The notes under the pieces: generated by a model | Database searches by the model: none | Told to the model about the DNA's origin: nothing | What the model saw: only the letters and a program-made list of their open reading frames with translations | Translations under genes and position numbers: made by a program | Part shown: positions 12,285 to 26,529 of the stretch, piece by piece | How positions within the stretch are numbered: position 1 is the stretch's first letter | Layout of the letters: every line of letters begins with the position of its first letter | From: Dyella sp. 2HG41-7 | GTDB taxonomy: Bacteria; Pseudomonadota; Gammaproteobacteria; Xanthomonadales; Rhodanobacteraceae | DNA length: 64,000 bases | Assembly: GCF_021390675.1 (NCBI RefSeq) | Contig: NZ_JAJEJV010000004.1 | Span: 3,534,001-3,598,000, forward strand | Direction: 5' to 3'

Positions 12285-13667
12285 ATGGCTGTCAGCGCAT
12301 TCGATATTTTCAAGATCGGTATTGGCCCTTCTTCCTCTCACACCGTAGGCCCCATGCGGGCCGCCGCTCGTTTTTCCGAGCGCTGGCTGGATGAAAAAGG
12401 CGTGCTCGATCGCGTGGTGCGCGTGCGCGCGGAACTCTACGGTTCTCTCGCCATGACCGGTCGTGGACACGGCACCGACAAAGCCGTCGTGCTCGGCTTC
12501 GAGGGCGAGCATCCGGATACGGTCGACGCCGACAATATTCCCGAGATTCTCAAGCGCGTGCATACGAGTCATCGCATTCGCCTCCTCGGCAAACATGAGA
12601 TCGAGTTCGACGAAAAGCGCGATCTCGTTTTCAACAAGCGTCAAAAGCTTCCGTTCCACACCAACGGCATGCGCTTCTCCGCCTACGATGCCGACGGCAA
12701 CGAACTGGCGACGCGCGATTACTACTCCGTGGGCGGCGGCTTCGTCGTCAATCACGATGAAGCGGCGGAAGACCGCATCGTCGCCGACACCACTGAGCAG
12801 CCGTATCACTTCGCCACCGGCGATCAATTGCTGGCGTTGTGCGAACAGCACAAGATGACCATCGCCCAGCTGATGATGGAAAACGAAAAGGTTTGGCGCA
12901 GCGAAGCGGAAATCCGCGCAGGCATGCTGAATATTTGGAAAGCCATGCAAGGATGCATGGAACGCGGGCTGCGCTCGCCGGGCATATTGCCGGGCGGCTT
13001 GAAAGTCACGCGTCGTGCGCCCGCGATGGCGACGGAATTGCGCAACCAACCCGAGGCGTCGCTCAAAGATCCGCTCACGATTCTGGACTGGGTGAATCTC
13101 TACGCGCTTGCCGTGAACGAAGAAAACGCCGCCGGCGGACGCGTCGTCACCGCACCGACCAACGGCGCGGCGGGCATCGTTCCGGCGGTGCTGCACTACT
13201 ACCACCGTTTCTGCCCGAAATCCGACGAAAACGGCATTATCGATTTTCTACTCACCGCCGCCGCCATCGGCATTCTCTACAAAGAGAACGCATCCATTTC
13301 CGGCGCCGAAGTCGGTTGTCAGGGCGAAGTGGGCGTCGCGTGCTCCATGGCCGCGGGCGGCCTAACCGCCGCCTTGGGCGGCACCGTGCATCAAATCGAA
13401 AACGCCGCTGAAATCGGCATGGAACACAACCTAGGCCTGACGTGCGATCCCATCGGCGGCCTGGTGCAGATTCCGTGCATCGAGCGCAACGCCATGGGCT
13501 CGGTCAAAGCCATCAACGCCAGCCGCATGGCGCTCAAGAGCGACGGCAAGCACCGCGTATCGCTCGACAAGGTGATCGCGACTATGCGCGATACGGGTCG
13601 CGATATGAAGGACAAGTACAAAGAAACGTCGCGCGGCGGGCTTGCGGTCAACGTGATCGAGTGCTGA
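12285..13667 (+). CDS. sdaA: L-serine ammonia-lyase (iron-sulfur serine dehydratase)
   Basis: A 460-residue single-chain enzyme converting L-serine to pyruvate and ammonia with a [4Fe-4S] cluster. The N-terminal [15 protein letters not shown] is the beta-domain signature. The catalytic alpha domain holds the clustered cysteines Cys345, Cys353 and Cys387 ([10 protein letters not shown] and LTCDPIGG) and a further Cys in QIPC. The length and domain order are normal for the type 2 enzyme. It is transcribed alone and is followed by a repeat element. Confidence 0.95.
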
Positions 13668-13723
13668 TGCACGCGCCTTAGCATTGTCGTCGCCATGAAG
13701 ACACTGTCTCGCCGATAACCGCT

Positions 13724-13761
13724 CCCTCCCCTGCGTAGTAGGGGAGGGCTGGGGTGGGGTC
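13724..13761 (+). repeat. GC-rich REP-like palindrome with tail, left border of DUF559 unit
   Basis: CCCTCCCCT (13724-13732) and AGGGGAGGG (13740-13748) form a 9-bp stem, followed by the tail CTGGGGTGGGGTC to 13761. The same stem-plus-G-rich-tail design recurs, inverted, at 14144-14179 and as a pair at 24402-24538. The tail here points towards the DUF559 gene, whose stop codon lies 11 bp further on. Confidence 0.75.
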
Positions 13762-13772
13762 AGTCCCCAACC

Positions 13773-14111
13773 TTACCGATTCGGCAAATTCCGCCAAATT
13801 TCTTCAAGCGCACTTTCCGTCCGAAGCAGTACGTCATCGTTCCAAAAGCGCAAAACACGATATCCACGCGACCCAATTACGCGTGTACGATTCACGTCGT
13901 ATTCCCGCGATTCGCTATGCTTCCCGCCATCCAGTTCAATAACCAATTTGGCTGATACGCAGACAAAATCTACGATATATCCAGCTATGGGATATTGCCG
14001 CCGGAACTTGAATCCCGCGAGATTTTCGCGTCGCAAAAAGCGCCACAAGTGGCGTTCCGGATCGGTTGTAGCATGACGAAGCGCGCGTGCGCGCATCCAT
14101 TTTTCGTCCAT
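13773..14111 (-). CDS. DUF559-domain endonuclease-like protein
   Basis: A 112-residue protein of the DUF559 family, which has a PD-(D/E)XK/Vsr-like restriction-endonuclease fold. Landmarks are Glu19 in DPERHLW, Asp48 in YIVDF, and Glu59/Asp61 in VIELDGGKH. A C-terminal RVLRFWNDDVL segment is typical. The protein covers the whole domain with nothing added. The gene is bracketed by two inverted REP-like elements whose tails face it from both sides, with 11 bp and 32 bp gaps. Its function is not established; a role in moving or maintaining these repeats, as RAYT transposases do for other REPs, is a guess from context. Confidence 0.88.
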   Translation of the reverse strand: MDEKWMRARALRHATTDPERHLWRFLRRENLAGFKFRRQYPIAGYIVDFVCVSAKLVIELDGGKHSESREYDVNRTRVIGSRGYRVLRFWNDDVLLRTESALEEIWRNLPNR

Positions 14112-14143
14112 CGCAAATCCATTGCGTTATCGCGAGGTGCGTT

Positions 14144-14179
14144 ACCCCCTCTCAACCTCCCCCTGCCTGCAGGGGGAGG
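14144..14179 (-). repeat. GC-rich REP-like palindrome with tail, right border of DUF559 unit
   Basis: CCTCCCCCTG (14156-14165) and CAGGGGGAGG (14170-14179) form a 10-bp stem. On the minus strand it is followed by a G-rich tail covering 14157-14144. Relative to the element at 13724 it is inverted, so both tails point into the DUF559 gene. It also sits 14 bp past the stop of the sensor kinase gene and may help end that transcript. Confidence 0.75.
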
Positions 14180-14193
14180 GCAAATTCCAAAGC

Positions 14194-15492
14194 TCAATCG
14201 CTGCCGCTGCGCACGAATACGATGGTCGCGATGGCGCCGTTGGTATCGGTGCGTGGTCGCATCGACACATCCCAGCTGTAAAGCTCGCAAAGACGACGCA
14301 CGATGGCTAGGCCCAGACCCGCGCCGCTTCCGCCTGCGCCCTCACCACGCACGCCGCGCTGAAATAGGCGCTCGGCGTCTTCCGGTTTGATGCCGGGGCC
14401 GGTATCGATCACGTCGACACGACCTTTTTCCACGGTGACCGTCACGCGACCTTCGAGCGTGTATTTGATCGCATTGCCGATCAGGTTGGTGAGCGCCACC
14501 GACAATACCGAAGCCGGCGCGTTGACGGTGATCGCATCGTTCTGCACCAGCTCGATGTCGACGGGTTTGTCGCGAATTTGCGGCCGCTGGCTTTCGATGA
14601 CGTCGGAGGCGACTTTGGCGACATCAGTGGTTTCGCCACGCGTCGGCCCGCGGCGCTCGGCGCGCGACAAAAGCAGAAGCGCCTCGATCAGTTCCGTCGC
14701 CTGACGCGATGCACGCTCGATACGCTTGAGGCGTTCGCGCAATTTGTCGGTGAGATCCGGTGAACCTTGCAACAGTTCCGTCGTGCTGGAAATAACGGCA
14801 AGCGGCGTGCGCAACTCGTGGCTTACATCGGAATTGAATTCGCGGTCGCGTTCCACAATGGCGGTAAGCCGCTTGGCGTATTCGTCCAATGCTTGCGCCA
14901 ACTCGCCTACTTCATCGTCGGCAAAGTGCACCGCGAGCGGTTCGGCTCGACCTGTTTTCTTGAAATCGCGCAAGCGTCGCGCCAATTCGCTGACGGGTTT
15001 GAGCACTTTGCGCGACAGCCACAAACCAATCGCGAGCGACAACAAGCTAAACAAAACAACCGCAGAAATGAGCGATGTGATCAGCTGGCGCTTACCTAGA
15101 TCTTCGCGACTGATGTCGTAGCGCACGAACCCGATAATGCCGTCCTTGCGACGAACGGCGAGCTTGTAGTGTTTGACATGCCCGCTGGCATCCGTTTCGT
15201 ACATGTCGTGGATGCCGGTATCCAGGTTCTGCCACGCCAACGGCATCTTGTAGAGCGTGCGATCGCTCTTGATCCACGCTTCCACCAATTCGGAAGCAAC
15301 CGGCTGATTGGGATTGGCGATGGTTTTATCGACCGCCTGATCGACGTCGCTTTGCAGCGCGCCAGCGACCAACTGATTCTCGACCTTGTAGCGCACATAC
15401 AACGACGCCACGGCAAACAACGCGCTGAGGCCAAAACCGAACAGCGCGAAGGAGAGGATGAGGCGAAACCGCAGCTTACGCCTGGACTGCAT
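14194..15492 (-). CDS. Sensor histidine kinase (two-component system)
   Basis: A 432-residue membrane kinase. One membrane segment lies at about 9-30, a periplasmic domain of roughly 105 residues follows, and a second segment lies near 138-160. Then come HAMP (LSRKVLKPVSELARRL), HisKA with VSHELRTPL (His225), and HATPase_c with NLIGNAIKY, DTGPGI and GAGLGLAI. All catalytic boxes are intact. The start overlaps the end of the response-regulator gene by 17 nt. The stimulus cannot be read from the sequence. Confidence 0.93.
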   Translation of the reverse strand: MQSRRKLRFRLILSFALFGFGLSALFAVASLYVRYKVENQLVAGALQSDVDQAVDKTIANPNQPVASELVEAWIKSDRTLYKMPLAWQNLDTGIHDMYETDASGHVKHYKLAVRRKDGIIGFVRYDISREDLGKRQLITSLISAVVLFSLLSLAIGLWLSRKVLKPVSELARRLRDFKKTGRAEPLAVHFADDEVGELAQALDEYAKRLTAIVERDREFNSDVSHELRTPLAVISSTTELLQGSPDLTDKLRERLKRIERASRQATELIEALLLLSRAERRGPTRGETTDVAKVASDVIESQRPQIRDKPVDIELVQNDAITVNAPASVLSVALTNLIGNAIKYTLEGRVTVTVEKGRVDVIDTGPGIKPEDAERLFQRGVRGEGAGGSGAGLGLAIVRRLCELYSWDVSMRPRTDTNGAIATIVFVRSGSD

Positions 15493-16162
15493 CCGGATCG
15501 ACCATGCGGTAACCGATGCCGTGTCTGGTGTGGATCAAGGCCTTTTCGAACGGCTTGTCGATCGCGGCGCGCAGACCGTGGATGTGCACCCGCAGGCTAT
15601 CGCTGTCGGGCAATTCTTCGCCCCACACTTTCTGTTCCAGATCCTGCCGCGTGACGACGGAAGGGCTGGCTTCCATCAACGCTTGCAACAGCTTCAGCCC
15701 GATCGGATTGAGCTGGATGGATTTGCCGTCGCGGGTGACCGTGAGGGTGTCCAGGTTATAGGTGAGGTCGGCGACCTTGAGCACACGGCTCTGCGGGCCC
15801 TTGCCGCGACGCGCCAAGACTTCCAGGCGCGCGGCCAGCTCCTGCAGGGCGAAGGGCTTGGTCATGTAATCGTCCGCGCCGGACTCGAAACCGGTGAGCT
15901 TTTGCTCCAGGGCGTCGCGGGCGGTGAGCATCAGCACGGGGGTTTGCTTGTGGGCTTCGTGGCGCAGCTTGCGGGCTACGTCCAGGCCGTCCATACCCGG
16001 CAGGGTCAAGTCGAGCACGATGACGTCGAAATCGTGCACCACGGCCAGGTGCAGGCCGGTGACGCCATCTCCGGCAAAATCCACGACGTGGCCACGATCT
16101 TCCAGATAGTCGCCAATATTGGTCGCGATATCGCTGTTATCTTCTATGACTAGAACGCGCAT
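15476..16162 (-). CDS. OmpR-family response regulator
   Basis: A 228-residue protein. The N-terminal receiver has the acidic pair in VIEDN, the phosphoacceptor Asp51 in VLDLTLPGMDG, Thr in LTA and Lys in KPF. The C-terminal winged helix ends RHGIGYRMV. It is the partner of the overlapping downstream kinase gene and is upstream in the operon, so it is made first. The pair resembles Xanthomonadales envelope or metal-stress systems, but I do not assign a name. Confidence 0.94.
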   Translation of the reverse strand: MRVLVIEDNSDIATNIGDYLEDRGHVVDFAGDGVTGLHLAVVHDFDVIVLDLTLPGMDGLDVARKLRHEAHKQTPVLMLTARDALEQKLTGFESGADDYMTKPFALQELAARLEVLARRGKGPQSRVLKVADLTYNLDTLTVTRDGKSIQLNPIGLKLLQALMEASPSVVTRQDLEQKVWGEELPDSDSLRVHIHGLRAAIDKPFEKALIHTRHGIGYRMVDPDAVQA

Positions 16163-16284
16163 GCGTCTCTCCGCTACGCAGCCAGCACAAGGGCCGGGGG
16201 AGCCCCAAGCTTAACGAGTGAAGGACGCAAATGTTAAGAGCCAGGCTGAACGTTTAGTGCCAGCTCATTTTTCGGGGGCCGCAG

Positions 16285-16398
16285 CCAAGAAAAAGCCCGG
16301 ACACTGCAGCTGCGCTGCCGCATCCGGGCTGAAGCTACTGCCCCGATACCGTCGTCTGCTGTCGCCCTTGCGATTGAAGTAGCGAGCAAACAAACAGT
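16285..16398 (-). ncRNA. Candidate small RNA or terminator in the 322-bp gap between the response regulator and rimK
   Basis: On the minus strand AGCCCGGA (16330-16323) and TCCGGGCT (16301-16294) form an 8-bp stem followed by TTTTT, a good intrinsic terminator. A TATAAA box lies at 16410-16405 on the same strand, about 115 nt upstream, but no convincing -35 box is seen. The two could bound a small RNA of roughly 110 nt, or the hairpin may simply end the rimB-rimK transcript about 155 nt past its stop. No frame of note is visible in the gap. The rest of 16163-16484 holds nothing else I recognise apart from the likely promoter side of the response regulator. Confidence 0.4.
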
Positions 16399-16484
16399 AG
16401 GGTCTTTATAGACGCGGAGCAGTTACGCCGTAGTTAACCCGCGCTCACTGCTTGGTTAATGCGCGGCGCGGTGCAGGTTTGTGG

Positions 16485-17399
16485 TCACTGCGTGAATGCG
16501 CGCGAGGACGCGCGTTTACGGCGTTTGCCGCAGTGCTGCTCCAGGTGCAGGATGATGTGCTCGGCCACATTCACACCTGAAGCCGCTTCGATCCCTTCCA
16601 AGCCTGGCGACGCGTTCACTTCCAGCACCAGCGGACCGCGCTTGGAGCGCAATAGATCGACGCCGGCGATCCCCAGGCCAAGGGCTTCGGCGGCATCGAT
16701 GGAAATCCGCCGCTCGGCCGGCGTCAATTTGGCGACGACGGCGGTGCCGCCGCGATGCAGGTTGGCGCGAAATTCTCCGGGAACCGCTTCGCGCTGCATG
16801 GCTGCCACCACCTGGCCGCCCACCACGAAACAGCGCAGATCGCTGCCCTTGGCTTCGGCGATAAATTCCTGCACGAGGAAGTTGGCGTACAGGCCGCGGA
16901 ACGCTTCCACCACGCTTTGCGATGCGCTGCGCTTTTCCGCCAGCACCACGCCGGTGCCTTGGCTGCCTTCGTTGAGTTTGATCACGTGCGGTGGGTCGCC
17001 GAGCATGTCCAGCACATCGGTGGTGTCGTCAGGGTTGTCGCCGAACACGGTGACCGGCATGTCCAGACCTTTCGCGGACAGGATCTGCAAGCAGCGCAGT
17101 TTGTCGCGCGCACGCAGCACCGCGTCGGACGAATTGGGCGTGTACACGCCCATCATTTCGAGCTGGCGCAACACGGCTGTGCCATAGAACGTGCTCGATG
17201 TGCCGATGCGCGGGATGGCCGCGTCGATATCGTGCAGCGCTTTGCCCTTGTAGCGAATTTCCACTTCGCCCGGCGCGATACGCACGTAGCAGCGCAGCGG
17301 ATCGAGCACGCGCACCACGTGCCCGCGTTCGCGCGCCACCTCGACCAGGCGTTGCGTGGAATACAGCCGCGCGTTGCGCGAAAGGACGGCGATTTTCAT
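16485..17399 (-). CDS. rimK: RimK-family ATP-grasp ligase
   Basis: A 304-residue ATP-grasp enzyme. E. coli RimK adds glutamate residues to the C-terminus of ribosomal protein S6 and can make poly-alpha-glutamate. The central segment [16 protein letters not shown] is the nucleotide-binding loop, and [15 protein letters not shown] is the metal- and phosphate-binding end of the fold. The length is normal. The start overlaps the stop of the upstream gene by ATGA, placing it in an operon with its protease partner. Confidence 0.92.
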
Positions 17400-17848
17400 G
17401 GCTTATCCATCGTGAGGTGCGCGGGCTTGGGCAACGTATAGGAAAGTGCTGGGTTGACGAGGAAGCGCCCAACCAGCGCGGTGCGCCCCAATAGCATAGG
17501 AAACAGCATGTGCCGACGATCCGTCAGATTTATGTCAACTTCAAAACGCTCGCCGGCCAGCATCACGTCGGTACGGATAAACCAGCGCTCGCTGCGTCCG
17601 CCGCCGGTGTCGACCACCACGCGACGGTCGCAAGCCGGCGCTTCGCAAAGCACCTGACGCCCTGAACGGCGCCCCAGGCCCACCATGAATCGCAGCCAGG
17701 TATTGCCGTCGCGGGTAAAGGTTTCCAACTGGTCCACATGCAGCGAACTGCTGCGCGCGCCCGTATCGAGTTTAACCTTGAGGGAGGCGATGCCGAACTG
17801 AGGCAATGCCAGTCGTTCCCGCCAACCGAGGGTGATTGCTTCCGCCAT
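17396..17848 (-). CDS. rimB: RimB-type retropepsin-like protease (RimK-associated)
   Basis: A 150-residue protein of the COG4067 group. [15 protein letters not shown] near 24-38 is an aspartic-protease-like D-T-G motif, which gives the retropepsin fold. In Pseudomonas the RimB protease removes the glutamate tails added by RimK. The gene overlaps rimK by ATGA, which supports joint function. It is the first gene of the pair, and the tRNA-Gly gene lies about 53 bp upstream on the same strand. Confidence 0.85.
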
Positions 17849-17901
17849 GTCAGCTCACGCTGTCGGGTCTGAGAATCTCGGTGGGGGCCGAAAAGAGATC
17901 G

Positions 17902-17975
17902 TGGAGCGGGTGAAGGGAATCGAACCCTCGTCAGTAGCTTGGGAAGCTACAGCTCTACCATTGAGCTACACCCGC
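17902..17975 (-). tRNA. tRNA-Gly (anticodon CCC)
   Basis: A full cloverleaf reads on the minus strand from GCGGGTG (acceptor 5' arm, 17975-17969) to CACCCGC followed by T and an encoded CCA at 17904-17902. The D arm has AGCTCAATGGTAGAGCT. The anticodon stem is GTAGC/GCTAC with loop TTCCCAA, so the anticodon is CCC, reading GGG. The T arm has GGTTCGATTCC. The rest of 17849-18154 outside the tRNA shows no gene. Confidence 0.97.
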
Positions 17976-18154
17976 GACGTTTGGCGATGGTAACCGGCAG
18001 GTGGGGCTTTTGGAATCCTGACCCGATTTCTAAACCCTCGGCAACGGCCACTCCTTCACTAAGCAAACGCTCATAATGGATAAGCAACATCTCCCATACA
18101 CGGATGATGACGGGAGCGCGACCGTTTCGCGCGCTGCAGCACGGAGAGAGATTT

Positions 18155-20212
18155 ATGCGTGCGCTCATGGCTGTTGTGTCTTTCTCGCGCGGCTGGCGAA
18201 TGCTGCTGGCCACGTTGCTTCTGATCTGCGCCAGCTTGGCATGGGCCCAATCGGACGATAGCCAGCCAGGCGATGCCGGCGATCCACCCGCGCGCGTCGC
18301 GCGACTTTCTTACGCCACCGGCGATCTGGGTTTGATGCCCTCCGGCAGCACCGATTGGAGCGCTGCCGACGTCAACCGGCCCCTAACCAACGGCGACAAG
18401 TTATCCAGCGGCGCGGATGCGCGCGCCGAGTTGGATCTCGGTGGCGCATCGTTGCGCATCAACAGCCAGAGCGATGTCGGCGTACTCAATCTCAACGACC
18501 AGATCGGCCAGTTCGAACTGACGCAAGGTACGGTAAATCTCACCGTGCGCAATATCGATCAAGGCGCGACCTACGAGATCGACACGCCGACGCTGGCGCT
18601 GGTCGTCAATCAACCCGGCACCTTTCGTATCGATGTAGGCGCCAATGGCAACGGCACGACGATCACCGTGATCGACGGCGGCGGCATCGTCTACGGCGAA
18701 AACAACGCGCAGCGCGATGTGTTCAGCGGCCGCACCTATGAAGTTGCCGATTCCACGTTGAACAACATCACGGTGAGCGATATCCAAGGTCGCGACGAGT
18801 TCGATGCGTGGTGCAACGATCGCGATGCGCAATACGCCAACACCGACAACACGCAACAGCAATACGTGTCGAGCGATGTCGTGGGTGCGCAAGATCTCAA
18901 CCAATACGGCGATTGGCAGCAAGACGAGGACTACGGCAACGTGTGGTATCCCACCACCGTCGTAGCCGGTTGGGCGCCGTATCAAAACGGACACTGGGTC
19001 TGGATCGGGCCGTGGGGTTGGACCTGGGTCGACGCCATGCCGTGGGGTTTCGCGCCGTATCACTACGGTCGTTGGGCTTACATTCGCAATCGCTGGGGAT
19101 GGATTCCGTGCCCCCCGCGCGCGCGTCCGATCTACGCGCCTGCGCTAGTGGCTTTCGTCGGCATGGGCGCCGGCGGACCGGTGGGTTGGTTCCCGCTCGG
19201 ACCGCATGAAGTTTACAACCCGTGGTATCGCGCATCGCGCGGTTATTACACCAACGTCAACGTCACCAATATCGCGATCAGTCGCAACTACAACCAGACG
19301 ACGGTGATCAACAACATCCACAATCAATACAACTACTACCGCGATGGTCGCCCGGTCACCGGCGTGGATTATGTGAACCGCAACGCGCCGCATGCGTTCA
19401 CCGCCGTTCCGGCGCAGGCGTTTGCCAGCGCGCGCAACGTGCGAAGCAGCCAGATGCACGTGGATCCGCAGCAATGGGCGCATGCCTCGGTCGTCGCGCC
19501 TACGGCATTGCAACGTCCTTCGTCGGCAAGCTTCGGTCAACCGCGCAACGCCAATATGCGACCGCTGCCGGCGGCCGGATTCAATCGCCCGGTGGTTGCG
19601 GTGAATGCGCCTTCGCCTTCGGTCGCGGCGAATGCATCGTTTCGTGCGGGTCAACCGGCATCGAATGTACGCATGCTCGGTGTGCAGCCGCGCAACGTGC
19701 CGAATGTGGTGTCGGGTCGCAGCTATCCGCGCTATGCGACGCCTGGCGAGCAACCGCAAAACGTGCCGGCTCCGCGCCAAGCTCCGCAGCCGTTGCCGCA
19801 GGTTCCGCATTTCGCGCCCGCGCAGCAGATTCAGCAGGTGCAACAGGCGCCGCACTATGCGCCGGCGCAACCGTCGTTCGAACAACAGCAACGTGAGCGC
19901 GAAGCGACTATGGAGCAGCAGCAACAGCAGCAACGCCAGCGCGACGCCGCCATCGAGCAACAGCGTATGGAGGCCGTGCAGCGCGAGCGTCAATACACGC
20001 CGGAACAACCGCGCCAGTACGTTCCCCAGCAACAACCGCGTCAATACGAGCCGCAGCCGAATCCGTCGTATCGACCGCAGCCGTATCAGTATCAGGCTCC
20101 GCCGCAATACGCACGCCCAGAAATGTCGCATCCGGCGCAACAGCCGCATCCGCAAAATGCGCCGCAACCTCACTATGCGCCACCGGCCAAAAACGACAAC
20201 CAGCAGCATTGA
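18155..20212 (+). CDS. Secreted FecR-domain / DUF6600 protein with glutamine- and proline-rich tail
   Basis: The ATG at 18155 is chosen because GGAGAGAG lies just before it and a signal peptide (about residues 1-32, ending LAWAQS) starts there; this gives 685 residues. The mature part begins with a FecR-like beta domain (ARVARLSYATGDLGLMPSG through GGGIVYGEN, about 50-200). A DUF6600 block follows, rich in Trp and Tyr: WAPYQNGHWVWIGPWGWTWV, then WGWIPCPP and GWFPLGPHEVYNPWY. From about residue 440 the chain is low complexity, ending in Gln/Pro/Tyr-rich repeats that look disordered. It is probably an outer-envelope or periplasmic protein; its function is unknown. It is transcribed alone, and a hairpin follows. 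Confidence 0.85.
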   Translation: MRALMAVVSFSRGWRMLLATLLLICASLAWAQSDDSQPGDAGDPPARVARLSYATGDLGLMPSGSTDWSAADVNRPLTNGDKLSSGADARAELDLGGASLRINSQSDVGVLNLNDQIGQFELTQGTVNLTVRNIDQGATYEIDTPTLALVVNQPGTFRIDVGANGNGTTITVIDGGGIVYGENNAQRDVFSGRTYEVADSTLNNITVSDIQGRDEFDAWCNDRDAQYANTDNTQQQYVSSDVVGAQDLNQYGDWQQDEDYGNVWYPTTVVAGWAPYQNGHWVWIGPWGWTWVDAMPWGFAPYHYGRWAYIRNRWGWIPCPPRARPIYAPALVAFVGMGAGGPVGWFPLGPHEVYNPWYRASRGYYTNVNVTNIAISRNYNQTTVINNIHNQYNYYRDGRPVTGVDYVNRNAPHAFTAVPAQAFASARNVRSSQMHVDPQQWAHASVVAPTALQRPSSASFGQPRNANMRPLPAAGFNRPVVAVNAPSPSVAANASFRAGQPASNVRMLGVQPRNVPNVVSGRSYPRYATPGEQPQNVPAPRQAPQPLPQVPHFAPAQQIQQVQQAPHYAPAQPSFEQQQREREATMEQQQQQQRQRDAAIEQQRMEAVQRERQYTPEQPRQYVPQQQPRQYEPQPNPSYRPQPYQYQAPPQYARPEMSHPAQQPHPQNAPQPHYAPPAKNDNQQH

Positions 20213-20222
20213 TCGCGCACAT

Positions 20223-20251
20223 AGACGTGCTCTCGAAGTGGGAGCACGTCT
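20223..20251. terminator. 10-bp hairpin between the DUF6600 gene and the convergent cytochrome gene
   Basis: AGACGTGCTC (20223-20232) and GAGCACGTCT (20242-20251) pair perfectly around a 9-nt loop, 10 nt after the DUF6600 stop. It serves two convergent genes. T content downstream is low. Confidence 0.55.
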
Positions 20252-20266
20252 AGCCGGTTTGCGCGA

Positions 20267-22375
20267 TTACAGCGTCTTTAGATATTCGATAATCGCAGCA
20301 CGCTCCTGATCCGTCAGAACATCGGTGAATGCATGGCCTGAATTGGATTGGCTGTACATGTGCGTGTTGTAAATCTTGCGATTTTCGATATCCGCATTGG
20401 TAAACGTCGGCGCCGTCAGTTCCGACAGCACGTTCCACAAGATCGAACCGTTGGCGTAAACCGGATTGAACAACGTCGTGAGCAGCGACTGGACCAACAC
20501 GGTGTTCTCCGGGTCTGCGGGATTGCATGCGAGATATGGCGAAAGCAAACCCGTGGGATCGCATTGCAATGTGGCGAACTGCCAACCGAGATTGGTTTGA
20601 TCGTAGGCCGACAGATCGGTTTGGTACCCCATTACAAATCCCGTTTGCGGTGGTTTGGACACGCGCTCCCATAACGCAGGGCGATCGGACGACTTCAGAA
20701 CGTCCCATACGCTCGGCACCGATCCGTTATGGAAGTAAGGCGCCTCCGCCCAGACGCCGTAGAGTGGCGGCGCCAGATAACCGGTACCTTCGAACTGCTC
20801 CGCGCAACCGGTCTGACCCGGATAACCAAAGTAGTTGTTCTGAAACTGAGCTTTGATCGCGAGGGTATTGGCGTTGAATCGCGCCGGATCGGTATTGATG
20901 ATGTTAATGGGCGTGACATAACCCGCCATGCCCGCTAACGTCGAATCCGACAGGAAAGCTGTGTTATTCGCGTAATACGGTGCATAAGCACCGTGGCAGC
21001 TCGCACAGGAGCCGTTGCCATTGCCACTGCCGTAACCCGGTGGAGGCGGCACTGGATTGTTACGCGAGGGATCCCACAAATTAAGCGTGTGGAACAACAC
21101 CGACCCTTGCTCCGCCAATGCGGTATTGATAGGGAATGGATACGACGGCGATTGGACGCTAAGCAGCCAGGTGTTGGACGAACTCACGTGCGACTCGACC
21201 CAGTCGAAACCTTGCTGATACTGCGGTGTCGCTGCGTACGGCATGTACCACGACAATTCGATCCGTGCCGAATCGGCACTCATCCCTGCGTCGTAAAACT
21301 TCGCCGGACGGTGACCGAGGTTCCACCAACTCGGCGGGTTTTCGCTCCCGCTGGTTCCCGACAGCCAAAGTCCTGGATTGAGAAGGCTGGGCAACGATTG
21401 CGGGTCGAACAACGTGAGCAGTCCGAACATCTGAAAGTTGGTAATGTCCCCGCTGCCACGCACTCGATTGAGGCCAAACAGATAGAAACCCGTATTGCCG
21501 TTGGGCGTGCCATTCGCCAAACCCGTATTCGCGAATTCGGTCAACAGTACATCGAGGTCCGCTAGGCCGTTGCGACCCAGCAAAGGTCCGAGCCCCGGCC
21601 CGTCAGCCGCACTGCCAACCTGTCCGCCGTGACATACCGCGCAGGTAATACCGACATTTCCACTCCACGAACCGTCGGCGTTATGCAATTGCGTCAACGC
21701 CATCGGGAGGGTGCCCGAACCGCCATGGGTCTGATTCGGATCTTCGCCGGGCAATGGATACGGATTGCTTACTCCTGGCGGCGGTAACGGCACCCCATAG
21801 CGCTCAGCCACCATTTGGTCGAAATTGGCTGGCCGAGTCGCGAAAAGTCCAAGGCCCCATTGCTGCCACAGATTGTTGTAAGCGGCGGCAGGAAGCGTCC
21901 ATTGACTCGACGCTTGGTTACCGGTGAACTCCGCCGCGTCGTTCGCGCTACCAAAGCCGGCCACCGTCTGCGCCCCCGCTGCCGCTTGCGAGCGCAAGTC
22001 GCCGCACGTCTGGGGCCGCTGAGTTTGCGCCATGCACGCGTACCAGGACACGTTGAACATCACGGCTCTGCCCTGGGAGATGGCGGGTGAAACTTCCGCA
22101 CGTGGATCGTTTGGTAACGGCGTGCTATCTGGCAGTGGGGTGCCAGGACCTCCAGGCGTTTGCCCCGCACAGTATTTGAACCAATAGTGCCCACCGTGAT
22201 CGCTGCTGAGCAGGTCTTGCTGGGATTGCGCACGCGCTGCTCCGCTGAGCCCCAAAAGACCGCAGAAACACGCCATCGCCTGCAATCTTCGATGATGGCG
22301 ATAGGGTTCTGCCTCGGATTTCCCCTGCCGTGCGCGAGCGGCGGTATATCTGCGCATAGGCTTGCACGTGCTCAT
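20267..22375 (-). CDS. Secreted di-heme c-type cytochrome, RoxA/MauG-like
   Basis: The start at 22375 (MSTCKPMRR) is preceded by GGAGGTG; an earlier in-frame codon at 22408 is less likely. The product has 702 residues, with a late signal peptide ending SGAARAQS. Two CXXCH heme sites are present: CAVCH and CASCH, 212 residues apart (245 and 457 from this start). Between them lies WWNLGHRPAKFYDAGM, the bridge region typical of MauG/CcpA-type di-heme proteins. The size, the wide heme spacing and the CASCH second site resemble rubber oxygenases RoxA/RoxB of Xanthomonas and relatives. It could instead be an uncharacterised di-heme peroxidase or oxidase. No accessory gene lies next to it. Confidence 0.75.
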   Translation of the reverse strand: MSTCKPMRRYTAARARQGKSEAEPYRHHRRLQAMACFCGLLGLSGAARAQSQQDLLSSDHGGHYWFKYCAGQTPGGPGTPLPDSTPLPNDPRAEVSPAISQGRAVMFNVSWYACMAQTQRPQTCGDLRSQAAAGAQTVAGFGSANDAAEFTGNQASSQWTLPAAAYNNLWQQWGLGLFATRPANFDQMVAERYGVPLPPPGVSNPYPLPGEDPNQTHGGSGTLPMALTQLHNADGSWSGNVGITCAVCHGGQVGSAADGPGLGPLLGRNGLADLDVLLTEFANTGLANGTPNGNTGFYLFGLNRVRGSGDITNFQMFGLLTLFDPQSLPSLLNPGLWLSGTSGSENPPSWWNLGHRPAKFYDAGMSADSARIELSWYMPYAATPQYQQGFDWVESHVSSSNTWLLSVQSPSYPFPINTALAEQGSVLFHTLNLWDPSRNNPVPPPPGYGSGNGNGSCASCHGAYAPYYANNTAFLSDSTLAGMAGYVTPINIINTDPARFNANTLAIKAQFQNNYFGYPGQTGCAEQFEGTGYLAPPLYGVWAEAPYFHNGSVPSVWDVLKSSDRPALWERVSKPPQTGFVMGYQTDLSAYDQTNLGWQFATLQCDPTGLLSPYLACNPADPENTVLVQSLLTTLFNPVYANGSILWNVLSELTAPTFTNADIENRKIYNTHMYSQSNSGHAFTDVLTDQERAAIIEYLKTL

Positions 22376-22580
22376 ATTCACCTCCAGCAACATGGCGGAG
22401 CGAATCAAAACAACTGCAAATCCCCAGGTTTTTGACGCTAGCCCAGAAATTGTTTTGCCCAGATGAAGGGATGAGAATCAATCGGTAAGCGATGAGAACA
22501 AAACGGCAAACCTCGCGTGGACGCCCACGACATATAGCCAATCTTCAAAACCGTGTAGGAATTAAACGCAAGCCTGCCGT

Positions 22581-22592
22581 TACAATAGGCGG
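22581..22592 (+). promoter_or_regulatory. Possible -10 box for a near-leaderless thiS transcript
   Basis: TACAAT at 22581-22586 ends 6 nt before the thiS ATG, so transcription would start at or next to the start codon. No clear -35 match is visible, and no Shine-Dalgarno at normal spacing is seen. No TPP-riboswitch core was recognised between the cytochrome gene start and thiS. Confidence 0.3.
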
Positions 22593-22793
22593 ATGCAGAT
22601 CAGCTTGAATGGCCATCCGCGCGATTGCGCAGACAACCTCACCGTCACCCAGCTCCTCCACGAAGCCGGCTACGCCGGACGGCGTGTTGCGGTGGAGGTG
22701 AATCACGAAATTGTTCCGCGCAGCCAGCACGACGGCCATGCCTTGCGTGAGGGCGACCGCGTGGAAATCGTCCATGCCATCGGTGGCGGCTGA
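22593..22793 (+). CDS. thiS: Sulfur carrier protein ThiS
   Basis: A 66-residue ubiquitin-like protein that carries the thiazole sulfur as a C-terminal thiocarboxylate in thiamine synthesis. It ends in HAIGGG, which supplies the Gly-Gly tail. The start [12 protein letters not shown] and the [24 protein letters not shown] body are typical. It is followed 37 nt later by thiG, its direct partner. Confidence 0.92.
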
Positions 22794-22830
22794 CCCCGCC
22801 CGCCTCACCCTGCCGCGAAAGACATTCCCC

Positions 22831-23631
22831 ATGAACATCAAAACCCACGACACCACCGATTCCCTGGTCATCGCCGGCAAAAGCTACGGCTCGCGTTTGC
22901 TCACCGGCACGGGCAAATACAAAGATCTCGACGAAACGCGACGCGCCACGCTGGCTGCCGGCGCGGAAATCGTTACGGCGGCCATCCGTCGCGTGAATCT
23001 TGGGCAAGATCCGAATGCGCCCAGCCTGCTCGACGCCCTGCCGCCCAACGAATTCACCCTGCTGCCCAATACTGCGGGCTGCTACAACGCGGTCGATGCG
23101 GTGCGCACCTGCAAACTCGCGCGCGAGCTGTTGGACGGCCACAAACTGGTGAAGCTGGAAGTGCTCGGCGACGAACGCACGCTATTTCCCGACGTCGTCG
23201 AAACATTGAAGGCCGCCGAACAATTGGTCGCCGACGGTTTCGACGTGATGGTCTACACCAGCGACGATCCCATCCTTGCCAAGAAGCTCGAACAAATCGG
23301 CTGCGTGGCGGTGATGCCACTGGCGGCGCCGATCGGTTCCGGTCTCGGCATCCAGAATCGCTACAACCTGCTGGAAATCATCGAGAACGCAAAAGTGCCG
23401 ATCATTGTCGACGCCGGCGTGGGCACGGCTTCCGATGCCGCGATCGCGATGGAATTGGGTTGCGACGGCGTGCTGATGAATACCGCCATCGCCGGCGCCA
23501 AAGATCCGGTGTTGATGGCGCATGCGATGAAGCTAGCGATCGAAGCAGGCCGCGCGGCGTTTCGCGCAGGACGCATTCCGCGTAAACGGTTTGCGTCGGC
23601 TTCCAGCCCGATTGACGGCACGATTGGCTAA
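22831..23631 (+). CDS. thiG: Thiazole synthase
   Basis: A 266-residue TIM-barrel enzyme that joins the ThiS thiocarboxylate, 1-deoxyxylulose 5-phosphate and dehydroglycine into the thiamine thiazole. Lys108 in [10 protein letters not shown] is the Schiff-base lysine. [14 protein letters not shown] and [12 protein letters not shown] are the phosphate-binding loops. The ATG at 22831 is used; the frame runs upstream to 22711 but only through thiS. No thiH or thiO lies nearby. Confidence 0.96.
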
Positions 23632-23634
23632 AGG

Positions 23635-23671
23635 TTTTGCTCCCTCTCCCCGGAGGGGAGAGGGAGCAAAA
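23635..23671 (+). promoter_or_regulatory. 17-bp perfect hairpin overlapping the trmB ribosome-binding site
   Basis: TTTTGCTCCCTCTCCCC (23635-23651) and its exact complement (23655-23671) flank a 3-nt GGA. The right arm contains AGAGGGAG, the only good Shine-Dalgarno sequence, and ends 6 nt before the trmB ATG at 23678. The core CCCTCTCCCCGGAGGGG is shared with the repeat at 24516-24538, so it is probably a REP-family element that now sits in the leader. There is no T tail after it on the plus strand. Confidence 0.6.
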
Positions 23672-23677
23672 ATTCGC

Positions 23678-24385
23678 ATGAGCAACGATCACGACACCAC
23701 CAACCACCTGCGCCGTATCCGCAGCTTCGTGCTGCGCGAAGGCCGCATGACGCCCGCGCAAGAGCGTGCCTTCCAAACGCATTGGGCGCGCTTTGGCGTC
23801 GACTTCACCGGCAACGTGCAAGACTTCGACGCGCGTTTCGGTCGCCATGCGCCGCGTGTGCTGGAGATCGGCTTCGGCAATGGCGAAGCGCTGGCGTGGG
23901 CCAGCGAGCACGATCTGGCTCGCGATTACATCGGCGTGGAAGTGCACGGCCCCGGCGTCGGTCGACTGATGAATGCACTGGCTGCGCGCGATGCGACCAA
24001 TGTGCGCCTCTACAAGCATGACGCGGTGGAAGTGCTGGAACAGGAGATCGCCCCTGGCTCCTTGAGCGAGGTGCGTATTTGGTTTCCCGATCCCTGGCAC
24101 AAGAAGCGCCACAACAAGCGGCGCATCGTGCAGCCAGCGTTCGTCGCCCTGCTCGCCTCACGCGTCGCGCCCGGCGGCCTGCTGCACCTTGCTACCGACT
24201 GGGAACCGTACGCGCAACACATGCTGGACGTGATGGAAGGCGCGCCGGATTGGCGTAACGACATCGGGCCAGGACAATACGCCGAGAAGCCGGATTGGCG
24301 CATCGAAACGCACTTCGAGCGGCGTGGGCTGAAGCTGGGGCACGGCGTGTGGGATCTGCTCTATAGGCGCGATCCTCGCGCATAG
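23678..24385 (+). CDS. trmB: tRNA (guanine-46-N7)-methyltransferase
   Basis: A 235-residue SAM-dependent enzyme that makes m7G46 in tRNA variable loops. [14 protein letters not shown] is the SAM-binding loop. [18 protein letters not shown] is the family signature, and [14 protein letters not shown] follows. The ATG at 23678 is used because it fits the usual start and follows AGAGGGAG; the frame is open upstream to 23591 through the repeat. Its ribosome-binding site lies in a strong hairpin. Confidence 0.95.
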
Positions 24386-24401
24386 CGCGACGCGTTTACC
24401 T

Positions 24402-24538
24402 CCTCTCCCCTATGGGGAGGGGATGGAGGTGAGGGGGCATGGCTTGTCTCAGACAACAATAGAGAGAGCTTCGCTTCGATTTTTGAATACCCGCGAGATT
24501 GACCCCTCACCCCAGCCCTCTCCCCGGAGGGGAGAGGG
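24402..24538. repeat. Inverted pair of REP-like elements (BIME-like), 137 bp
   Basis: A left unit has the stem CCTCTCCCC/GGGGAGGGG (24402-24422, one mismatch) and the tail ATGGAGGTGAGGGGG. The right unit has the tail GACCCCTCACCCCAG and the stem CCCTCTCCCC/GGGGAGAGGG (24516-24538). The two are inverted, with tails facing inward across about 60 bp of unrelated sequence. This fills most of the 302-bp gap between trmB and the SLC13 gene. The remaining part, 24539-24687, shows no gene and should hold the transporter promoter. Confidence 0.8.
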
Positions 24539-24687
24539 CGCGACGCCGTGCCCCAATGCGGCAACGGTTCACCAGTAATCCGACGCACGCGCTTATACTT
24601 CTTCGCTAAACAGGGAAGAGTCATTCGCGTGAAGCTGCTGCTGCCCCATCGCAACCCGCCTCTTTCGCCCGCCAGGGATGGTCGACA

Positions 24688-26529
24688 GTGTCGCTGACCC
24701 TGACCCCTGAGATGATTCTGGTGTTGGGGCTGGTGTGTTTCACCATGCTCATGCTGGTGCTGGAATGGATTCGGGCCGACATGGTGGCCTTGCTGGTGGT
24801 GGTAGTGATCGGCCTCACTGGCCTCATTCCCTCCGATCGCGTGTTCAACGGTTTCGCCGGTAACGCTGTGATCGCCATCATCGCGATCATGATCATGGGC
24901 GCCGGGCTCGATCGCGCCGGCGTGCTCGGACTTACCGCGCAATTCGTGATGCGTATGGCGCGCGGCAAAGAATCGCGCCTCGGCGTCGTCATCAACTCTG
25001 TCACCAGTCTGTTCAGTGCGGTGATTCCGAGCCAGGCGCTTGCGGCGCTGATGATTCCCGTCACCAGTCGCCTGTCCGCGCGCACCGGCGTGCCGATCTC
25101 GCGTCTGTTGCTGCCGATGGCGTTCTGCATTCTTACCGCCACCAACACCACGTTGATCGCGAACTCGCCGCTGATCGTTCTCAACGACCTCATCGCCAGC
25201 GCCAACGCCAACCTGCCGCCGGGCGCGCAAACGGTGCCGAAGTTCGGGCTCTTCAGCGTGACGCCGGTGGGTCTCGCGCTGGCTGTCGCCGGCGTGCTGT
25301 TCTTTTATCTCTACACCAATAAACTTTTGCCGGAACGCGAAGACGAACGGCAGAAAGTGACGCCTGGTCGTACCGAAAGTTACTTCGCCGAAACCTACGG
25401 CATCGTGGGCGAAACGGCGGAGCTGACGGTGACGGCGGAAAGTCCGCTGGTCGGCATGAGCATCGGCGAAGTGGAACAACTGCACGGCGCGCCGCTGATC
25501 CTCGCCATCAAGAGCGCTAACGATGCGCGCATGGCGCCGCCGGCCGATCAAGTGATCTGGGTCGGTTCGGTGCTCGGCGTGCTTGGTCCGCGCGACGAAT
25601 TGAATCGCTTCGCCAACAATCAACTCTGCAAAGTGTCGCCGCGCATGCGGCAGTTGGCCGAACTGTTCAACCCGACGCGCGCCGGTATTTCCGAGGCAGT
25701 GATTCCGCCGAACTCGCGTTTTCTCAAGCAATCGGTGGGCGATCTTCGCTTGCGCAAACGCTACGGCATTTCGGTGCTTGCGGTAACGCGCGGCGAGCAG
25801 GTGTATCGCGACGATCTGCGCTCGGTGAGTTTGCGCACGGGCGACACGCTGGTGCTGCACTCGAGTTGGAAAGCGCTGCAAGACGTCTCGGAAGACAAAG
25901 ACCTGGTCGTCGTCACCGACATCCCGCGCGAAGAGCAGCGCCCAAACAAAGTTTGGCAAGCGGTGGGTTTCTTTCTGTTGGCGAAAAGCCTGGCGCTGTT
26001 CACCAACCTCGACTTGTCCATCGCCATGATGACCGGCGCCATCGGCATGCTGCTCACTGGCGTGTTGAACATGGACGAGGCCTATCGCGCAGTGAACTGG
26101 AAAACCATCTTCGTTACCGCCTGCTTGATTCCGCTCGGTTGGTCGATGGATACCACCGGCACTGCCGCATGGGTAGCGCAGGAAGTGCTGGTGCATCTCG
26201 GGCATGCATCGCCGTGGATTCTGCAGACGTCGCTCGCCATTCTCACCTTGCTGTTTTCGCAGGTGATGTCGAACGTGGGCGCCACGGTGATGATGGTGCC
26301 GGTGGCGATCAGCGTGGCGGTCGCCACGGGCGGCAATCCATCCGCGTATGCGTTGATCGTCGCGGTGTCATCGTCCAACACGTTCCTGCTGAGCTCTGGT
26401 CACCCGGCCTTGATGATGGTCACCGGCCCCGGCGATTACAGCGGCAAGGATTTTTTGCGTGCGGGCATACCGCTTACGTTTATCGTGCTGGTGATTACGC
26501 TGGTGGCCATCAACCTGATGTTCCGCTAA
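24688..26529 (+). CDS. SLC13-family permease with TrkA_C domains
   Basis: A 613-residue inner-membrane transporter of the divalent anion:Na+ symporter group. About five hydrophobic helices (residues 8-205) are followed by two cytoplasmic RCK/TrkA_C regions (about 230-300 and 320-410, with SLRTGDTLVLHS), then about six more helices. NATNTTLIANSPL-like and GATVMMVPVAISVAV stretches give the repeated helix-hairpin motif of the family. The start is a GTG at 24688; no in-frame ATG lies upstream. The substrate, possibly sulfate or dicarboxylate, cannot be decided. Confidence 0.85.
   Translation: MSLTLTPEMILVLGLVCFTMLMLVLEWIRADMVALLVVVVIGLTGLIPSDRVFNGFAGNAVIAIIAIMIMGAGLDRAGVLGLTAQFVMRMARGKESRLGVVINSVTSLFSAVIPSQALAALMIPVTSRLSARTGVPISRLLLPMAFCILTATNTTLIANSPLIVLNDLIASANANLPPGAQTVPKFGLFSVTPVGLALAVAGVLFFYLYTNKLLPEREDERQKVTPGRTESYFAETYGIVGETAELTVTAESPLVGMSIGEVEQLHGAPLILAIKSANDARMAPPADQVIWVGSVLGVLGPRDELNRFANNQLCKVSPRMRQLAELFNPTRAGISEAVIPPNSRFLKQSVGDLRLRKRYGISVLAVTRGEQVYRDDLRSVSLRTGDTLVLHSSWKALQDVSEDKDLVVVTDIPREEQRPNKVWQAVGFFLLAKSLALFTNLDLSIAMMTGAIGMLLTGVLNMDEAYRAVNWKTIFVTACLIPLGWSMDTTGTAAWVAQEVLVHLGHASPWILQTSLAILTLLFSQVMSNVGATVMMVPVAISVAVATGGNPSAYALIVAVSSSNTFLLSSGHPALMMVTGPGDYSGKDFLRAGIPLTFIVLVITLVAINLMFR

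What the first reader, a model, noticed from the sequence alone, without database searches (positions are those of the whole stretch)
13724..14179. DUF559 nuclease gene nested between two inward-facing REP-like elements
The 112-residue DUF559 gene (13773-14111) is flanked 11 bp away by a stem-plus-tail repeat (13724-13761) and 32 bp away by an inverted copy (14144-14179), both tails pointing at the gene. A gene-less pair with the same inward-tail layout lies at 24402-24538. The whole unit is only about 456 bp. This resembles the way RAYT transposases sit inside REP pairs, but with a Vsr/PD-(D/E)XK-like nuclease instead. It may be a small, undescribed nuclease-repeat unit that spreads or copies itself.
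Basis: partly seen in the sequence, partly recalled or inferred. Interest (0 to 1): 0.62.

Follow-up and report, generated by a model that had tools for sequence, protein, structure and literature searches.

The report
Nuclease gene paired with dispersed repeats
A tiny DNA-cutting enzyme gene sits between two mirror-image hairpin repeats, and in many related bacteria each lineage of this enzyme goes with its own version of a repeat scattered through the genome, which suggests that a nuclease of unclear role is the partner, and perhaps the spreader, of a widespread orphan bacterial repeat.

Summary
The 112-residue DUF559 gene (13773-14111, minus strand) lies between two inward-facing hairpin-plus-G-tail repeats; the genome's only other DUF559 gene found, 2.1 Mb away, has the same layout. 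It is general: 137 of 162 distinct DUF559 units, mostly from this bacterial family, have inverted flanking repeats, against 11 of 3285 control windows; across Pseudomonadota 67 of 108 against 3 of 255. In 197 genomes of the family, DUF559 predicts repeat number and the RAYT/IS200 domain does not; this genome shows none. Double dissociation: DUF559 clade A goes with repeat type 2, clade B with type 1. Gene-less inward pairs resemble REPINs. At the window's site 3 of 16 genomes of the genus have the unit, 11 lack it, 3 of those keeping one tail-less stem. The repeats belong to the known 'intrastrand triplex' (PIT/TM) motif, also beside E. coli ycjD (DUF559); I found no paper linking the two. Best reading: a nuclease-repeat partnership that works like RAYT/REPIN but with a Vsr/EDxHD-type nuclease. 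The gene itself seldom moves (clade B: one site in 47 of 47 units). Mobilisation by the nuclease is inferred, not shown.

The parts
13773..14111 (-). DUF559 nuclease gene, 112 aa, Vsr/EDxHD-like PD-(D/E)XK fold, clade A
   Evidence: PF04480 E 4.1e-41; AF2 model pLDDT 89, best solved folds 3hrl, I-Bth0305I, Vsr; E19, D48, E59, D61, H65 invariant in 45 proteins
13724..13761 (-). [quoted passage not shown]
   Evidence: exact type-2 match at genome C4:3547738-3547760
14144..14179 (+). sister-variant repeat next to the start codon: tail ACCCCCTCTCAA then stem, tail pointing at the gene
   Evidence: similar variant at the 5' side of the G038 and G135 units
14130..14143 (+). TCGCGAGG just inside the tail, like the GC(G/A)AG motif inside gene-less pairs
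   Evidence: seen; motif from 16 type-1 and 37 type-2 copies; likeness judged by eye
24402..24538 (.). gene-less inward pair of type-1 repeats (REPIN-like); the left copy is degenerate

Best explanation
This is a nuclease-repeat partnership. A single-domain DUF559 nuclease is encoded between two inward-facing hairpin-plus-tail repeats; gene-less inward pairs of the same kind of repeat are non-autonomous relatives scattered in the genome. The nuclease recognises its own repeat type, most likely as a folded single strand (stem plus G-rich tail) exposed at replication, cuts beside it, and so lets pairs be copied elsewhere by host repair or replication; the gene's own unit moves rarely or not at all. 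Shown: the architecture, its recurrence, the clade-to-repeat-type association, independence from RAYT, presence/absence at one site, purifying selection, Vsr/EDxHD-like predicted fold. Inferred: recognition of the folded repeat, cleavage, copying. I put the cognate pairing itself at about 0.85 and mobilisation by the nuclease at about 0.6.
For: Inverted flanking repeats in 137 of 162 distinct units against 11 of 3285 control windows and 67 of 108 across the phylum against 3 of 255. Repeat number against strong DUF559 in 197 genomes: with n=116 median 24, without n=81 median 0, genus-stratified permutations reaching it 0 of 5000; Y1_Tnp gives no signal (1497 of 5000), and the window's genome has 93 repeats and no Y1_Tnp match. 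Double dissociation: A only (n=14) type 1 median 3.5, type 2 median 44; B only (n=37) 33 and 0; permutations A-type 2 0, B-type 1 0, A-type 1 226, B-type 2 2987 of 5000; same picture in the 156 genomes at least 95% complete. 16 of 16 adjacent type-2 pairs inward. The window's site is filled in 3 of 16 genomes of the genus and without the gene in 11. Three complete units in tandem, period 501 bp, in G029. dN/dS median 0.13 over 268 pairs. Fold like I-Bth0305I and Vsr.
Against: No transposition event, clear target-site duplication or cut was seen. Clade B sits at one site in 47 of 47 units. Of close-protein pairs 843 share genomic context and 276 do not, so much of the covariation is shared descent; among non-syntenic pairs r is only 0.14. 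25 of 162 units and 41 of 108 across the phylum score under 40, some because the ends are variants, some with no repeat seen. Exceptions: G000 itself has 60 type-1 repeats without clade B; 9 genomes have at least 10 type-2 repeats without clade A; 16 genomes with strong DUF559 have at most 1 repeat of the searched pattern. The family search did not ring in the control E. coli genome although K-12 has a DUF559 gene, so 'no DUF559' means none at that sensitivity. E. coli ycjD has one full repeat, on one side, tail away from the gene. Of three plasmid units looked at, one is flanked. Tail-less stem scars occur with either loop, as plain slippage would give.
Confidence: 0.6

Rival explanations
1. 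DUF559 is a repair or structure-processing nuclease that copes with these fold-prone repeats; genomes rich in a repeat type keep the matching nuclease, and the repeats are spread by something else or are relics.
For: Clade B at one site in 47 of 47 units; purifying selection; a Caulobacter DUF559 protein, VsrA, is responsible for a DNA-damage response in cells lacking a methyltransferase and is proposed to be a mismatch-repair enzyme (PMC12907096, passages).
Against: Does not explain why the gene itself lies between inverted copies in 137 of 162 units, why clade A units occur at 10 sites among 22, or why gene-less pairs have the same inward layout.
Confidence: 0.2
2. Homing-type spread: the nuclease cuts at or near repeat-like or empty alleles and the unit or pair is copied in by recombination, as homing endonucleases do, rather than through a transposition intermediate.
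For: Second-best solved fold is the homing endonuclease I-Bth0305I (TMq 0.67; Z 12.3, 2.2 A over 92 residues); one paper assigns a DUF559 gene to the EDxHD homing family (PMC9403480, passage); presence/absence at one site.
Against: Homing puts copies at allelic sites; 46 type-2 copies at many places in one genome need another step. Rfam reports no intron in 13500-24700.
Confidence: 0.12
3. Passive cargo: a RAYT or other transposase spreads the repeats and DUF559 merely landed in one pair and was inherited.
For: Y1_Tnp matches occur in 127 of 197 genomes of the family.
Against: Repeat load does not follow Y1_Tnp (medians 4 with and 9 without, p 0.36) and does follow DUF559 and its clade; the window's genome has no Y1_Tnp match; the association recurs across the phylum.
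Confidence: 0.05
4. The repeats are transcription terminators or mRNA end structures of the DUF559 gene.
For: Stable hairpins close to both gene ends.
Against: No terminator-like site at the repeats in 13600-14300 (two weak ones lie inside the gene); repeats lie on both sides and also as gene-less pairs in tens of copies.
Confidence: 0.03

Closest known systems
RAYT/TnpA-REP with REP/REPIN elements (PMC3116915 and PMC8049555, passages; PMC2817692, listing only)
   Same: Gene flanked by its own palindromic repeats, gene-less inverted pairs dispersed between genes, distinct repeat flavours each near its own gene, gene single-copy and vertically inherited (here clade B).
   Different: Enzyme is a PD-(D/E)XK (Vsr/EDxHD-like) nuclease, not an HUH tyrosine transposase; Y1_Tnp not found in this genome and not correlated with these repeats.
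PIT / TM (TM_ECO) intrastrand triplex motif (PMC4666352)
   Same: Type-1 repeats have the layout stem + 3 nt + GGGNGAGGG; inverted pairs; intergenic; variable between E. coli strains.
   Different: That paper proposes triplex-driven instability, found no association of the E. coli motif with mobile elements, and does not contain the words endonuclease or DUF; its K-12 motif no. 9 is the one beside ycjD. The window's flanking repeats are variants outside its consensus.
DUF559 / YcjD / VsrA proteins (PMC1189080 and PMC12907096, passages)
   Same: Same protein family; PD-(D/E)XK, Vsr-like.
   Different: The passages read do not mention flanking repeats; VsrA is proposed to repair T:G mismatches.
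EDxHD homing endonucleases (I-Bth0305I)
   Same: Fold.
   Different: Free-standing gene between hairpin repeats, no intron or intein seen; many dispersed repeat copies.
MITEs of insertion sequences (general knowledge)
   Same: Short gene-less copies with the ends of a coding unit.
   Different: The coding unit has no transposase and in clade B keeps one site; no clear target duplication seen.

Membership tests
RAYT / REPIN | HUH Y1_Tnp (PF01797) transposase | tested here: not met
   The gene is PF04480; no Y1_Tnp match in the window's genome
RAYT / REPIN | repeats flank the gene and occur in many dispersed copies | tested here: met
RAYT / REPIN | repeats form inverted pairs of near-constant spacing | tested here: met
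   16 of 16 adjacent type-2 pairs inward, 15 of them at 51-102 bp; 7 type-1 pairs at 104-108 bp
RAYT / REPIN | gene single-copy and vertically inherited | tested here: inconclusive
   one site for clade B (47 of 47), ten sites for clade A (22 units)
RAYT / REPIN | GTAG or CGTC tag at the foot of the REP | tested here: inconclusive
   no such foot seen by eye in the 53 copies; the definition is known to me only from the title and abstract of PMC3733652 in a listing
PIT / TM motif | consensus CCCTCNCCC N3-6 GGGNGAGGG N3 GGGNGAGGG | tested here: inconclusive
   by eye the right copy at 24503-24538 fits; the window's flanking repeats deviate (CCCTCCCCT, GGGGTGGGGT)
PIT / TM motif | folds into an intrastrand triplex | not testable with these tools
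   only hairpin folding computed
EDxHD homing endonuclease | Vsr-like fold with E, D, H/D active site | tested here: inconclusive
   fold matches; E19, D48, E59, D61, H65 invariant, but the motif definition is recalled and was not checked
EDxHD homing endonuclease | encoded within an intron or intein, cuts the empty allele | not tested
   free-standing gene; Rfam finds no intron in 13500-24700; cleavage not testable here
DUF559 (PF04480) | family score above curated cut-off | tested here: met
   139.7 bits against 20.6
IS/MITE | target-site duplication | tested here: inconclusive
   relatives too diverged at the window's site; the E. coli fepB-entC alleles show at most a 3-4 bp ambiguous overlap, judged by eye

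The most novel reading that the evidence does not exclude
DUF559 nucleases are the mobilisers of a family of hairpin-plus-G-tail elements found across Proteobacteria and beyond (including the E. coli PIT/TM repeats): a second, independently evolved REPIN-like system driven by a lone PD-(D/E)XK nuclease rather than a transposase, with one nuclease clade per repeat type.
Probability: 0.5. Interest if true: 0.92.

Novelty: new variant of a known kind. Interest (0 to 1): 0.82.

Why it matters
These repeats have been described for years without a partner gene in the paper I read, and DUF559 is a common family (matches in 145 of 398 sampled genomes of the phylum) whose role is unclear. If the two belong together, a mobile-DNA system of a new enzyme class has been overlooked in common bacteria including E. 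coli, the strain-to-strain 'instability' at such repeats gets an enzymatic cause, and the RAYT/REPIN lifestyle (immobile gene, numerous repeats) has evolved twice. Two nuclease clades with two repeat types in the same hosts make it directly testable by swapping.

Tried and rejected
RAYT as hidden partner: no match in this genome and no correlation in the family. Terminator role: no such site at the repeats. Rfam: only a tRNA in 13500-24700. Whole unit as a busy transposon: rejected for clade B. Sinorhizobium pair as an empty site: the shorter allele is a deletion from inside the gene into the right repeat. E. coli fabI-sapF as an empty site: the two strains fetched without ycjD carry efflux genes there (also PMC12817139, passages), so not clean. 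Target duplication from E. coli alleles: ambiguous. I picked shorter alleles from the listings; at hrpB-mrcB one has no pair and two have one tail-less stem, one with each loop, which fits slippage between the palindromic stems (a palindrome at both ends is also a direct repeat), so scars cannot be counted as nuclease excision. Phages: 2 of 50,697 records (clade B query); plasmids: 44 of 72,556 (window protein). Of three plasmid units scored one is flanked (L377, score 74) and two are not (28 and 18); two further Azospirillum stretches were fetched and not analysed. A weak inverted-repeat score does not mean no repeats: the window's own unit scores 20 because its ends are different variants. 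The predicted fold also matches RAP-type chains of protist mitoribosomes at Z about 10; not followed.

Selection of data: the 80 loci are the best hits to the window protein; those are top-ranked matches, not random draws. In one search, 192 hits in 188 of 191 loci; 11 cut by contig ends and 19 duplicates dropped, 162 left. In one search, 141 of 162 units (score at least 38, plus L001) were used; the two sources label genomes differently, so one genome could bear two labels. In one search pairs without full context were left out. In one search one of 80 (L080) was cut. Clades A and B were set by me from the gap in identity, whose match lists are capped; four B genomes rest on partial matches (G022, G094, G106, G182). 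Clade lists were read by hand from the tree (few columns, many weak forks); 22 of 36 listed A loci and 47 of 47 B loci had usable context.

Papers: outline, passages and sections 12 and 19 of PMC4666352; passages of PMC12907096, PMC1189080, PMC12817139, PMC3116915, PMC8049555, PMC9403480, PMC12308824 and PMC9927313 (only DUF5590 there); a term search without hits in PMC12306157; all others only in listings. 'No paper linking the two' rests, in an open-access library only. The genus name Dyella is inferred: G038, of the same genus, has a contig of 2,327,151 bases like NZ_BSNQ01000003.1 of Dyella lipolytica.

Full report
What is there. The window (contig C4 3534001-3598000 of a 4.26-Mb genome, genus Dyella by inference) holds a 112-residue DUF559 gene at 13773-14111, minus strand. 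Eleven bases from its stop-codon end is a stem with a G-rich tail (13724-13761), and 32 bases before its start codon an inverted relative (14144-14179); both tails point at the gene. A gene-less pair of a sister repeat type lies at 24402-24538. The genome shows only one other DUF559 gene, at C4:1422357-1422668, and it too lies between two inward repeats, ACCCCACCC(C/T)ARCCCTCCCCT plus stem.

The repeats in this genome. Type 1 (CCCTCACCCC..CCCTCTCCC): 47 exact pattern matches, 1 in the reversed control, 7 inward pairs with starts 104-108 bp apart. Type 2 (ACCCCACCCNARCCCTCCCCTNC, up to 2 mismatches): 46 copies, 0 in the control. Of 16 adjacent type-2 pairs closer than 600 bp, 16 are inward: 15 at 51-102 bp and one at 407 bp, the second DUF559 unit; random 312-bp segments are flanked this way in 4 of 200,000 trials. 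Inside the tails the copies in the fetched loci share a GC(G/A)AG motif: in 16 type-1 copies four of its positions reach 1.66 bits; in 37 type-2 copies it is weaker, best position 1.52. The window unit has TCGCGAGG at the same place (by eye).

Is it general? Of the 80 best relatives in named genomes, 79 could be scored and, counted from the listing, 62 score at least 40, from Dyella to Variovorax, Pseudomonas, deltaproteobacterial bins, Omnitrophota and Binatota; L151, L103 and L093 do not exceed their own control windows, and L081 and L122 barely do. With further loci from the family, 137 of 162 distinct units score at least 40, against 11 of 3285 windows of equal geometry in the same loci. 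Across Pseudomonadota 67 of 108 do, against 3 of 255; several of these have a second small hairpin between stem and tail. Units without repeats exist, among them L273, L275 and L282.

Partnership rather than proximity. In 197 genomes of the family, those with a strong DUF559 match (E < 1e-15, n = 116) have a median of 24 repeats and 93 have at least 5; the other 81 have a median of 0 and 11 have at least 5; within-genus permutations reach the observed value in 0 of 5000. Y1_Tnp, the RAYT/IS200 domain, shows nothing (127 with, median 4; 70 without, median 9; 1497 of 5000), and the window's genome has no Y1_Tnp match. Splitting DUF559 into the window's clade A (27 genomes) and clade B (50 genomes), and repeats into types 2 and 1, gives a double dissociation: A only n = 14, medians type 1 3.5 and type 2 44; B only n = 37, 33 and 0; both n = 13, 43 and 24; neither n = 133, 1 and 0. 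Permutations reaching the observed value: A-type 2 0, B-type 1 0, A-type 1 226, B-type 2 2987 of 5000. In the 156 genomes at least 95% complete the result stands: 0, 0, 425 and 2895. Exceptions are real: this genome has 60 type-1 repeats and no clade B; nine genomes have ten or more type-2 repeats without clade A; 16 with strong DUF559 have at most one repeat of the searched pattern. The DUF559 family search did not ring in its E. coli control although K-12 has the gene ycjD, so absence is only absence at that sensitivity.

Covariation of gene and flanks. Protein similarity and repeat similarity correlate over 141 units (Mantel r 0.43, highest of 999 permutations 0.14). In genomes with two dissimilar units the flanking repeats look more like those of the nearest protein elsewhere than like the other unit's in 26 of 28 cases. 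Much of this is shared descent: 843 close pairs share context and 276 do not; among non-syntenic pairs repeat similarity rises from about 0.42 to 0.55-0.63 (r 0.14 overall). On the protein tree the repeat label changes 33 times against 66 when shuffled (few columns, many weak forks).

Does it move? At the window's site, between sdaA (serine dehydratase, named by recall from the sequence) and a sensor kinase gene, 3 of 16 genomes of the genus have the unit (G000, G038, G135), 11 have both neighbours but no DUF559 (nine with 51-133 bp between the matches, two with 603 and 1004 bp), and 2 cannot be judged. Three of the sites without the gene (G051, G180, G125) hold one tail-less stem. G029 carries three complete units in tandem with a 501-bp period. 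Clade A occurs at 10 sites among 22 units; clade B at one site in 47 of 47, both neighbours homologous, one of them an amino-acid kinase/decarboxylase fusion gene. In E. coli a gene-less pair between hrpB and mrcB is full in K-12, absent in AH20K059, and a tail-less stem in two other strains, one with the left loop and one with the right; the fepB-entC pair is absent from two of four strains aligned. The scars fit slippage between stems and do not prove nuclease excision.

The protein. An AlphaFold2 model (pLDDT 89, pTM 0.83) matches NGO0050 of Neisseria gonorrhoeae (3hrl), the catalytic domain of the homing endonuclease I-Bth0305I (TMq 0.67; Z 12.3, 2.2 A over 92 residues), Vsr (Z 10.1, 2.3 A over 97) and, at a level that may be only a common arrangement, the Tn7 protein TnsA (Z 6.9). 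E19, R38, Q39, D48, E59, D61, H65, D72 and R75 are among 19 invariant columns in 45 proteins. Median dN/dS over 268 close pairs is 0.13. So selection keeps the protein and its likely active site.

What is known. [quoted passage not shown] that paper ties it to genome instability, did not find the E. coli motif associated with mobile elements, and contains neither 'endonuclease' nor 'DUF'. Its K-12 motif 9 (1351204-1351239) lies 167 bases from ycjD, the E. coli DUF559 gene, though on one side only and with its tail away from the gene, with a partial stem and a repeated piece of the gene end between them. DUF559 proteins are known as PD-(D/E)XK and Vsr-like, one has been assigned to the EDxHD homing family, and in Legionella a repeated transposase-DUF559 segment is a recombination hotspot. 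None of the passages read links DUF559 with these repeats. RAYT genes are described as single-copy, vertically inherited genes that duplicate REPINs, which resembles the lifestyle seen here for clade B.

Conclusion. The pairing of DUF559 clades with their own repeats is supported by several different tests, not all independent of descent. It works like RAYT/REPIN but fails the defining enzyme test, so it is not a member. Recognition, cutting and copying by DUF559 remain inference, and a repair role remains the main rival.

Noticed in passing
L159, L163, L164, L166, L169 (sdaA-kinase region of G115, G104, G163, G066, G092): The same intergenic site carries other inverted repeats of a GGTTGGG(G/T) type in several species without the DUF559 unit, as if the site between two converging genes attracts palindromic elements.
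   Followed up: no
L278 and L298 (G392), also L312 and L323 (G576): Some alphaproteobacterial-looking DUF559 loci have inverted flanks of about 100 bp or more, alignment scores 119-201, much longer than the usual repeat.
   Followed up: no
L153 5205-5465 (NC_000913.3 about 1351204-1351464): Next to E. coli ycjD about 23 bp of the gene's 3' end is repeated between two repeat remnants, like a decayed second unit.
   Followed up: partly
G017: One genome of the genus carries 16 near-identical-scoring Y1_Tnp matches in 152-codon frames, perhaps a recent IS200-type burst.
   Followed up: no
G156:C44 (182-kb contig; same length as the Rhodanobacter sp. C06 contig of L076/L077): DUF559 hits mirror each other about the middle of the contig and its two ends give alike loci; it looks like a palindromic assembly artefact.
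   Followed up: no
G080, G124, G000: Genomes with many repeats but without the matching strong DUF559 clade: candidate orphan repeats after loss of the nuclease, useful for measuring decay.
   Followed up: no
window 17905-17975: tRNA gene on the minus strand (Rfam RF00005).
   Followed up: no
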